35,204 nt of DNA from contig JAFQAA010000017.1 of the NCBI GenBank assembly GCA_017417005.1, forward strand, positions 1-35,204, given 5' to 3'. A program made the translations under genes and the position numbers. Below, one piece after another: positions 19,625 to 20,916 of the stretch (the first letter of the stretch is position 1; every line of letters begins with the position of its first letter). The notes under the pieces are model-generated. The model had not been told where the DNA came from, made no database searches, and saw only the letters and a list, made by a program, of their open reading frames with translations. Source of the DNA: Elusimicrobiaceae bacterium. GTDB taxonomy: Bacteria > Elusimicrobiota > Elusimicrobia > Elusimicrobiales > Elusimicrobiaceae.

Positions 19625-19631
19625 TTAGTTG
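19591..19631 (-). repeat. 17-bp inverted repeat overlapping the rpsJ stop codon
   Basis: CAACTAAA-CCTTTTTGC at 19591-19607 pairs with GCAAAAAGG-(TA)-TTTAGTTG at 19613-19631, with a two-base bulge and a five-base loop. The rpsJ stop codon (19625-19627) lies inside one arm. No T-run follows on either strand, so a standard terminator is unlikely; partial termination, processing or mRNA stabilisation are possible. Confidence 0.7.
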
Positions 19632-19972
19632 CTCTTGATTGCCACATCTACACCGGCCGGTAAATCAAGTTTCATTAATTCATCAACGGTTTTAGAAGTG
19701 GGACTCTTAAGATCAATAAGTCTTTTGTGGATACGCATTTCAAATTGCTCTCTAGATTTTTTATCTGTATGGGGAGAGCGAAGAACTGTGTATTTGCGAA
19801 TTTTAACCGGTAAAAGAACCGGACCGCAAACTAAGGCGCCGGTTTTTCTGGCGGTATCAACAATTCTTGAAACAGAGTTATCCAACATTCTGTAATCATA
19901 AGAGCGAAGTTTAATGCGGATCCTTTCTTGTCCGCTTAACTTTGCTGTTTTCTTTTCTGTTTTTTCTGCCAT
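19625..19972 (-). CDS. rpsJ: 30S ribosomal protein S10 (NusE)
   Basis: A 115-residue S10, first gene of the superoperon. The core begins [11 protein letters not shown] near residue 18 and includes [19 protein letters not shown] and [10 protein letters not shown]. It has a short Lys-rich N-terminal extension. S10 also acts in transcription antitermination with NusB. An AGGAAA site precedes the start at rather long spacing. Confidence 0.97.
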
Positions 19973-20049
19973 TGTTTTTTGTTTTCCTAATTTCTTTTTT
20001 TAAAAAATATCTTTTTAAAAATCTTATCGCTTCCTTGCTTTTCTCTGAC

Positions 20050-20096
20050 GGCAAAACTCCAATTTTTGCCTTTTGTTTTTTTTGAGAAAACAAAGG
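20050..20096 (-). promoter_or_regulatory. Second and third hairpins of the S10 leader
   Basis: Two adjacent stems are seen. One pairs CC-TTTTGTTTT (from 20069) with AAAACAAAGG (to 20096), with one bulged base. The other pairs GGCAAAA (20050-20056) with TTTTGCC (20064-20070). They share bases 20069-20070, so they compete at their junction, a layout often seen in attenuators. No terminator T-run is evident after the promoter-distal stem. Confidence 0.45.
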
Positions 20097-20098
20097 GT

Positions 20099-20163
20099 CT
20101 AAAAGATACCTCTATGGCCGTTGTGTTAACTTGCAACAACCATAGTCCTGAGATTTCTTTTAG
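20099..20163 (-). ncRNA. Structured 5' leader element upstream of rpsJ
   Basis: A 65-base two-tier stem lies between promoter and rpsJ. The outer 8-bp stem CTAAAAGA/TCTTTTAG (20156-20163 with 20099-20106) encloses an asymmetric internal loop. The inner 12-bp stem is CTATGG-TT-GTTG with CAAC-GG-CCATAG (20134-20145 with 20112-20123), where the two central pairs are G-U wobbles in the minus-strand RNA only. That strand bias supports an RNA function. I do not recognise a known riboswitch; a ribosomal-protein autoregulatory leader is the simplest guess. Confidence 0.5.
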
Positions 20164-20189: not shown

Positions 20190-20220
20190 ATTATACCAAA
20201 TAATTTGGTATTTTTAACAA
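20190..20220 (-). promoter_or_regulatory. Promoter of the S10 superoperon (proximal), with palindrome in the spacer
   Basis: Minus strand: TTGTTA (20220-20215), 19-base spacer, then TATAAT (20195-20190) preceded by TGG, an extended -10. Transcription would begin near 20183, giving a leader of about 210 bases before rpsJ. A perfect 8+1+8 palindrome TACCAAAT-A-ATTTGGTA (20194-20210) fills the spacer and enters the -10 box, so a dimeric repressor could bind there; it may also be chance in AT-rich DNA. Confidence 0.65.
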
Positions 20221-20280: not shown

Positions 20281-20290
20281 TTTTTATAGC

Positions 20291-20332
20291 AAAACACCCG
20301 CTCTTTAAAAAAATAAAAAGGGCGGGTGTTTT
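20291..20332 (-). terminator. Terminator of the secreted Lys/Asn-rich protein gene
   Basis: AAAACACCCGC (20291-20301) pairs with GCGGGTGTTTT (20322-20332), extended inward by five further pairs including one wobble, around an A/T loop. The arms end in A/T runs, so it can terminate in either direction. It separates the secreted-protein gene from the S10 promoters. Confidence 0.8.
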
Positions 20333-20353
20333 AAATTTATAAACTAAATAAGT

Positions 20354-20872
20354 TTATTTTGTGGAAGTTGCTTCTTTCCAAGCATTTGCTTCTGCTTTAG
20401 CAGCATTTTTTGTGTTTCGCCAATTTTGCTTTACGCTTTTTTCAGTATTTTGAGCATTTTGCTTTGCCTGATTTTGACGATTTTTCCAATTCTGCCTCAT
20501 CTGATTGTGGCGTTCTTTCCAATTTTGTTTGGCCTGCTTTTCAGCATTTTTGGCATCTTTTTTTGCTTGGATTTTTTTGTTTTTAAAATCTTGTTTTGCC
20601 TGCTCCCATTTTGCTTTATTTTCCGCATTTTTTGCGGCATTTTCTTTTTGGGCATTGGTAACTTTTTCGTTCCAATTCTCTTTAGCTTCTTTTATATTTT
20701 GCTTTGCAGCTGCTTTATCTGCTTTATATTGCTCTTTTACAGATTTAACGGCTGCTTTAGCACATTCGTTTTTGCACGCAAGGTCTTCTGCTGTGCAAGA
20801 ACAGGTATCGGCGGCAAAAGAAACTGCGCCAAAGGCAACAAAAGTTGCTGTTAAGACAAATAATTTTTTCAT
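20354..20872 (-). CDS. Secreted Lys/Asn/Gln/Ala-rich protein with QNW repeats, function unknown
   Basis: A 172-residue protein I do not recognise. The start at M-K-K-L-F-V-L is chosen because AGGAGAAAC lies at ideal spacing; an ATG 21 bases upstream would overlap that site. A signal peptide (about 1-20, ending S-F-A) is followed by a small cysteine cluster (C24, C26 and two more C near residues 33-37). The rest is a charged, helix-prone low-complexity region with repeated (K/R)QNW(K/R) units and many A-K-N blocks, likely coiled coil. It could be a periplasmic polyanion-binding or envelope-spacing protein; this is speculation. It has its own promoter and terminator. Confidence 0.8.
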   Translation of the reverse strand: MKKLFVLTATFVAFGAVSFAADTCSCTAEDLACKNECAKAAVKSVKEQYKADKAAAKQNIKEAKENWNEKVTNAQKENAAKNAENKAKWEQAKQDFKNKKIQAKKDAKNAEKQAKQNWKERHNQMRQNWKNRQNQAKQNAQNTEKSVKQNWRNTKNAAKAEANAWKEATSTK

Positions 20873-20916
20873 TGTTAGTTTCTCCTTATACATAAGTTTG
20901 ATTTTATATACATAAA

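What the first reader, a model, noticed from the sequence alone, without database searches (positions are those of the whole stretch)
20050..20163. Three-hairpin leader upstream of the S10 superoperon
Between promoter and rpsJ lie a 65-base two-tier stem whose two central pairs are G-U only in minus-strand RNA, and two further stems that compete for bases 20069-20070. This is more structure than expected in an AT-rich leader, and I do not recognise any known riboswitch or the E. coli L4 leader. It may be a new ribosomal-protein autoregulatory RNA.
Basis: partly seen in the sequence, partly recalled or inferred. Interest (0 to 1): 0.6.

Follow-up and report, generated by a model that had tools for sequence, protein, structure and literature searches.

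The report
Conserved RNA hairpin before ribosomal-protein genes
In gut bacteria of the phylum Elusimicrobiota, the messenger RNA for some 25 ribosome proteins begins with a folded hairpin that evolution keeps paired while changing its letters; it is probably a new, family-specific switch by which the cell limits ribosome-protein production, a known kind of switch not previously described in this phylum.

Summary
The window is from an Elusimicrobiota (family Elusimicrobiaceae) genome. The 65-nt two-tier stem (minus strand, 20163-20099) is real. It folds far better than shuffles (z about -5), lies about 20 nt after a predicted extended -10 promoter (20217-20190), and precedes rpsJ, first gene of an S10-spc-alpha superoperon. 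In nine genomes of the genus, three diverged clades keep it by compensatory changes (covariation 0.384 against 0.23 in shuffles). A model of it finds one place per genome, always before rpsJ. The sister genus Elusimicrobium has a two-tier hairpin at the same place, again single-copy and covarying in its upper stem, but so different in sequence that the two models do not recognise each other.

The two downstream stems are not comparably supported. They occur only in the two nearest relatives, have unremarkable energy (z -1.7 to -2.5), and stem 2 loses to a long-range helix in the full leader. So "three hairpins" is only partly right.

No Rfam family matches. Best reading: a new lineage-specific ribosomal-protein leader. 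The ligand is untested; L4 is the best prior. boxA/NusE control and homology to the rRNA-operon leader hairpin were tested and not supported. New member of a known kind.

The parts
20190..20217 (-). Predicted promoter TTAAAA-16-TATAAT with TG before the -10 (extended -10); expected transcription start about 20183
   Evidence: Consensus scan (promoter-like sites in the region are at chance frequency overall, 5 found against 4.2 expected). A -10 at the same distance from the hairpin is visible in clades A, B and C, with a TTGCAA/TTGCAT -35 in B and C (sequences).
20099..20163 (-). Two-tier bulged hairpin (element III): P1 20163-20151/20111-20099, bulge 20150-20146, P2 20145-20134/20123-20112, loop 20133-20124
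   Evidence: Fold z -4.8; covariation in the genus; unique hit of model R2 per genome
20033..20096 (-).
   Evidence: Folds; kept in L003 and L004 only, z -1.7 to -2.5: weakly supported
20080..20092 (-). boxA-like TGTTTTCTCAAAA (compare the family's rRNA-leader boxA-like YGYTCTNTGAAAA)
   Evidence: Marginal in the window clade (P 0.04-0.085), near chance in nearly all other clades
19985..19990 (-). Weak Shine-Dalgarno-like TTAGGA before rpsJ, in an A-rich unpaired stretch
   Evidence: Read directly from the sequence; unpaired in the leader fold
19625..19972 (-). rpsJ (ribosomal protein S10), first gene of the S10-spc-alpha superoperon (continues to about 4488)
   Evidence: orthologues found in 108 of 150 relatives

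Best explanation
The hairpin is the sensor domain of a cis-acting ribosomal-protein leader (r-leader) specific to the Elusimicrobiaceae. The S10-spc-alpha superoperon mRNA starts about 20 nt upstream of it (inferred from the promoter). When a primary rRNA-binding protein encoded by the superoperon is in excess over rRNA, it binds the conserved bulged junction of P1 and P2 (inferred). The best prior is uL4, which controls the S10 operon in E. coli. Binding lowers expression of rpsJ and the genes coupled to it. Because no intrinsic terminator is predicted on this strand of the leader and the ribosome-binding site lies more than 100 nt downstream in an unpaired A-rich stretch, I favour interference with translation initiation or transcript elongation over a terminator switch or direct sequestration (inferred). 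Shown here: structure, covariation, position, single copy per genome, and restriction to this family among the genomes searched. Not shown: transcription, ligand, regulation.
For: Energy far below shuffles in the window and in 25 of 26 relatives tested. Compensatory changes between three clades of the genus: 11 double-sided pairs in the hand alignment, 8 in the covariance-model alignment with covariation 0.384 against 0.232 +/- 0.023 in shuffles and at most 0.139 when partners are slid; tree-aware null P 0.0055 for P1 and 0.0015 for P2. R2 hits one place per genome, before rpsJ, in nine genomes and nowhere else in 149 genomes of the order. Elusimicrobium has its own single-copy two-tier hairpin in the same place in 48 genomes with a covarying inner stem. 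In more distant relatives rpsJ directly follows a gene end that reads as the EF-Tu C-terminus, and no such hairpin is seen (L146, L149, L151). uL4 control of the E. coli S10 operon and the rule of predicting ligands by precedent: PMC10931766, PMC7247131.
Against: No sequence motif is conserved across all clades apart from the junction region within the genus; bulge and apical loop vary, which is unexpected if one protein reads them. Some members of the genus (L014-L016, L012) have hairpins that R2 matches weakly or not at all. In Elusimicrobium the outer stem does not beat a tree-aware null. No transcription, binding or expression data.
Confidence: 0.6

Rival explanations
1. Conserved structured leader that does not bind a ribosomal protein: for example an RNase III or other processing site, a 5' stabiliser, or a pause hairpin that shapes co-transcriptional translation of the superoperon.
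For: The paired shape is kept while bulge and loop sequences drift, which fits a double-strand-specific nuclease or a stability element; Eckert and Weinberg also warn that some RNAs regulating r-proteins in cis may bind none (PMC7247131).
Against: The junction (P2 pairs 1, 3, 4, 5 and the 3' strand AGGU) is the most conserved part within the genus, more than a pure stability element needs; the element is tied to one operon only.
Confidence: 0.25
2. S10 (NusE) with NusB autoregulates through a boxA next to the hairpin, by analogy with the rRNA-operon leader (hairpin plus boxA).
For: The window clade has TGTTTTCTCAAAA just after the hairpin (best score, shuffle P 0.04-0.085). The family's rRNA leaders have a two-tier hairpin directly followed by YGYTCTNTGAAAATTTGA. 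Putative boxA upstream of rpsJ has been reported in three gammaproteobacterial genera (PMC5725501).
Against: boxA is not conserved: scores are at chance level in nearly all other clades. Models of the rRNA-leader hairpin and of the window's rpsJ hairpin do not recognise each other.
Confidence: 0.08
3. Chance hairpin in an AT-rich intergenic region, or a structure acting in DNA.
For: Stable hairpins occur by chance; there are no expression data.
Against: z -4.8 with 0 of 200 shuffles; compensatory changes; U-G pairs that work only in RNA of the transcribed strand; strand-specific model scores (window 77.6 bits on the sense strand, 22.5 on the other).
Confidence: 0.05

Closest known systems
E. 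coli S10-operon leader (uL4-responsive)
   Same: 5' untranslated region of the S10 operon, directly before rpsJ, with hairpin structure
   Different: No Rfam match of any kind; no predicted attenuator terminator on this strand; the E. coli-type site is reported only from some Gammaproteobacteria (PMC10931766). Not aligned directly here.
Firmicutes S10 r-leader and Archaeoglobi L4 r-leader (listed in PMC7247131)
   Same: Predicted r-leaders before S10/L3-L4 operons, found by covariation
   Different: Other phyla; their alignments were not available here, so resemblance was not tested directly. No such motif is listed for Elusimicrobiota.
rRNA-operon leader with boxB-like hairpin and boxA
   Same: A two-tier hairpin near the 5' end of the transcript; S10 is NusE
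   Different: Reciprocal covariance models do not link the window hairpin with the family's rRNA-leader hairpin; one Elusimicrobium-type model hit in one rRNA leader is isolated; boxA not conserved before rpsJ

Membership tests
Ribosomal-protein leader (r-leader) | Lies in the 5' UTR immediately upstream of ribosomal-protein genes, consistently across genomes | tested here: met
   One place per genome, always before rpsJ: R2 in nine genomes, R1 in 50 genomes. That it is transcribed is inferred from the promoter.
Ribosomal-protein leader (r-leader) | Secondary structure supported by covariation | tested here: met
   in the window's genus; inner stem only in Elusimicrobium
Ribosomal-protein leader (r-leader) | A protein encoded by the operon binds the RNA | not testable with these tools
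   Needs binding assays
Ribosomal-protein leader (r-leader) | Binding reduces expression of the operon | not testable with these tools
   Needs reporter assays
Any RNA family of Rfam 15 | Match at or above the gathering score | tested here: not met
   Only a tRNA elsewhere in the window; nothing credible at the leader at permissive thresholds
E. coli-type uL4 S10 leader | Leader with an intrinsic attenuator terminator before rpsJ | tested here: not met
   No terminator-like site on the minus strand of the leader; the E. coli hairpins were not aligned directly
boxA/NusB-NusE (S10) regulated leader | boxA conserved before rpsJ | tested here: not met
   Marginal in the window clade, near chance in nearly all others
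rRNA-leader boxB-like hairpin of the same bacteria | Recognised by a covariance model of that hairpin | tested here: not met
   R3 finds the rRNA leaders but not the window hairpin; R2 finds no rRNA leader

The most novel reading that the evidence does not exclude
A fast-evolving r-leader class unique to Elusimicrobiaceae that recognises a protein not known to control this operon by a hairpin elsewhere (S10/NusE itself, possibly with NusB). In Elusimicrobium it would be extended by two more structured elements: a GGUGAA hairpin and a hairpin overlapping a second, internal promoter. That would tie ribosomal-protein synthesis to the rRNA antitermination machinery.
Probability: 0.1. Interest if true: 0.7.

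Novelty: new member of a known kind. Interest (0 to 1): 0.45.

Why it matters
Ribosomal-protein leaders are known mainly from Proteobacteria, Firmicutes and a few other lineages. This adds a candidate for a phylum with almost no RNA biology, in front of the largest ribosomal-protein superoperon. It also gives a clear example of a leader whose position and two-tier shape persist while its sequence turns over between sister clades, useful for studying how such regulators arise.

Tried and rejected
(1) Known family: Rfam at gathering and permissive thresholds gave nothing credible at the leader. (2) Unrestricted all-pairs covariation over the whole Elusimicrobium leader: no single pair significant after correction for all pairs, so only pre-specified helices were judged. 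(3) Elusimicrobium model R1 on the window: no hit at the hairpin, only weak hits elsewhere, one of them at stem 3 (20046-20073, E 0.08). (4) Shared element with rRNA-operon leaders: R1 hits one such leader strongly (L160 488-552) and one weakly, but R2 finds none and R3 does not find the window hairpin, so homology was not accepted. (5) boxA in the rpsJ leader: not conserved. (6) Leader-peptide switch: P2 of clades A and B contains a 5-codon AUG...UAA frame (MVVAS in the window, MAVDR in clade B), but it is not kept across the other clades; treated as a by-product of the stem. (7) Terminator/attenuator: no terminator-like site on the minus strand of the leader. (8) No 23S or 16S rRNA was found in the window's own assembly, and mimicry of rRNA binding sites was not attempted.

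Full report
What is there. The window lies in a 1.19-Mb Elusimicrobiota assembly (named relatives). On the minus strand, rpsJ (19972-19625) opens a gene string that reads, from its translations, as rpsJ-rplC-rplD-rplW-rplB-rpsS-rplV-rpsC-rplP ... rpsH-rplF-rplR-rpsE ... rplO-secY-adk-map ... rpsM-rpsK-rpsD-rpoA-rplQ (gene names from general knowledge of these families). Upstream is an unrelated exported-looking protein (20893-20354). The leader runs from a promoter-like site with extended -10 (20217-20190; expected start about 20183, inferred) to the ATG at 19972.

The observation. RNA 20163-20050 folds at -34.2 kcal/mol against -19.4 +/- 3.1 for shuffles (z -4.8), and the leader as a whole has z -5.2. 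The 65-nt two-tier stem is exact: P1 of 13 positions with one A-A mismatch, bulge CAGGA, P2 of 12 pairs including two U-G pairs, loop CAAGUUAACA. The two later stems are weaker. In the full leader the fold prefers a long-range helix (20096-20084 with 20045-20033) around stem 3 and drops stem 2. This downstream part alone has z -2.5, -2.1 and -1.7 in the window and the two nearest relatives and looks different in the other clades.

Relatives. rpsJ was located in 108 of 150 related genomes and the upstream regions were read. Within the window's genus three clades have a recognisable version: A (window, L003, L004), B (L005, L008, L010) and C (L009, L011, L013). L012 is a distant form, L014-L016 have another hairpin, and L006/L007 carry the Elusimicrobium type. 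By hand alignment, 211 of 221 cells are standard pairs and 11 pairs show double-sided changes. Because that alignment was fitted to the structure, it was checked in two ways. On the covariance-model alignment, 86% of cells pair, 8 pairs change on both sides, and covariation is 0.384 against 0.232 in shuffles and at most 0.139 when partners are slid; this alignment is also fitted to a structure, but not by hand. Against a null that moves each column's changes to random branches of an assumed tree, P is 0.0055 for P1 and 0.0015 for P2 on the hand alignment. Folded singly, without any alignment, nearly every relative gives a strong hairpin at this place (z -3.5 to -6.7 in 25 of 26 tested; L016 only -1.1).

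Specificity. Model R2 (built) hits one place per genome in nine of 18 genomes of the genus and nowhere in the other 140 of 149 genomes of the order at E 0.01. Model R1, built from Elusimicrobium-type hairpins, hits one place per genome (plus the antisense of the same place in a few) in 48 genomes of the sister genus and two of the window's genus, and no other place in 235 genomes of the class except one rRNA-operon leader. R1 and R2 do not recognise each other's hairpins, so that they are the same element is an inference from position, size and two-tier shape. In the Elusimicrobium type the inner stem exceeds a tree-aware null (0 of 400), while the outer stem, which can slip in register, does not.

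Function. The position, covariation and single copy are what Eckert and Weinberg (PMC7247131) require of a candidate r-leader, and their practice of naming the ligand by precedent points to uL4, the regulator of the E. coli S10 operon (PMC10931766). The most conserved part in the genus is the P1/P2 junction (P2 pairs 1, 3, 4, 5; 3' strand AGGU), a plausible binding site. How binding would act is inferred: no intrinsic terminator is predicted on this strand of the leader, and the ribosome-binding site is far away and unpaired, so translation-initiation interference or an effect on elongation is favoured. Two specific alternatives were tested. A boxA for NusB-S10, for which there is precedent upstream of rpsJ (PMC5725501), is marginal in the window clade and not conserved. 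Homology with the two-tier hairpin that precedes the boxA-like motif in the family's rRNA operons is not supported by reciprocal models.

Verdict. Real, conserved, and not in Rfam: a new lineage-specific candidate of a known kind. It is not a three-hairpin device; only the first hairpin carries evolutionary evidence. Regulation by a ribosomal protein is likely but unproven.

Noticed in passing
L160 488-552; rRNA leaders in L169-L196, about 200-250 nt before 16S rRNA: The rRNA-operon leaders of this family carry a two-tier hairpin (typically AAAUUUCC ... GGAAAUUU outer stem, variable inner stem) directly followed by a boxA-like YGYTCTNTGAAAATTTGA, after a TTGACA/-10 promoter.
   Followed up: partly
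rpsJ leaders of the Elusimicrobium-type genus and L006/L007, upstream of hairpin III (e.g. L116, L030, L119): Two further conserved elements lie between a TTTACA-17-TAYAAT promoter and hairpin III: a two-tier hairpin with a near-invariant GGUGAA in its apical loop, and a hairpin whose 5' arm contains TTTGGTAYAAT (an extended -10). Compensatory changes are visible by eye, but the second did not beat a tree-aware null on the present alignment and the first was not tested.
   Followed up: partly
L121 (one Elusimicrobium-type genome): A deletion has removed the GGUGAA element and half of the promoter-overlapping hairpin but left hairpin III intact.
   Followed up: no
window 20194-20210: Palindrome TACCAAATTATTTGGTA overlaps the start of the predicted -10; near-identical in L003 and L004. 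Possible operator or promoter dyad.
   Followed up: no
window 20112-20145, minus strand: P2 contains a 5-codon AUG...UAA frame (MVVAS); clade B has MAVDR at the same place. Not kept in the other clades, probably a by-product of the stem.
   Followed up: partly
window 20354-20893, minus strand: 179-residue protein with a signal-peptide-like start and a long Lys/Ala/Asn/Gln-rich repetitive region upstream of the leader; a strong GC-rich hairpin (about 20290-20333) follows it, probably its terminator.
   Followed up: no
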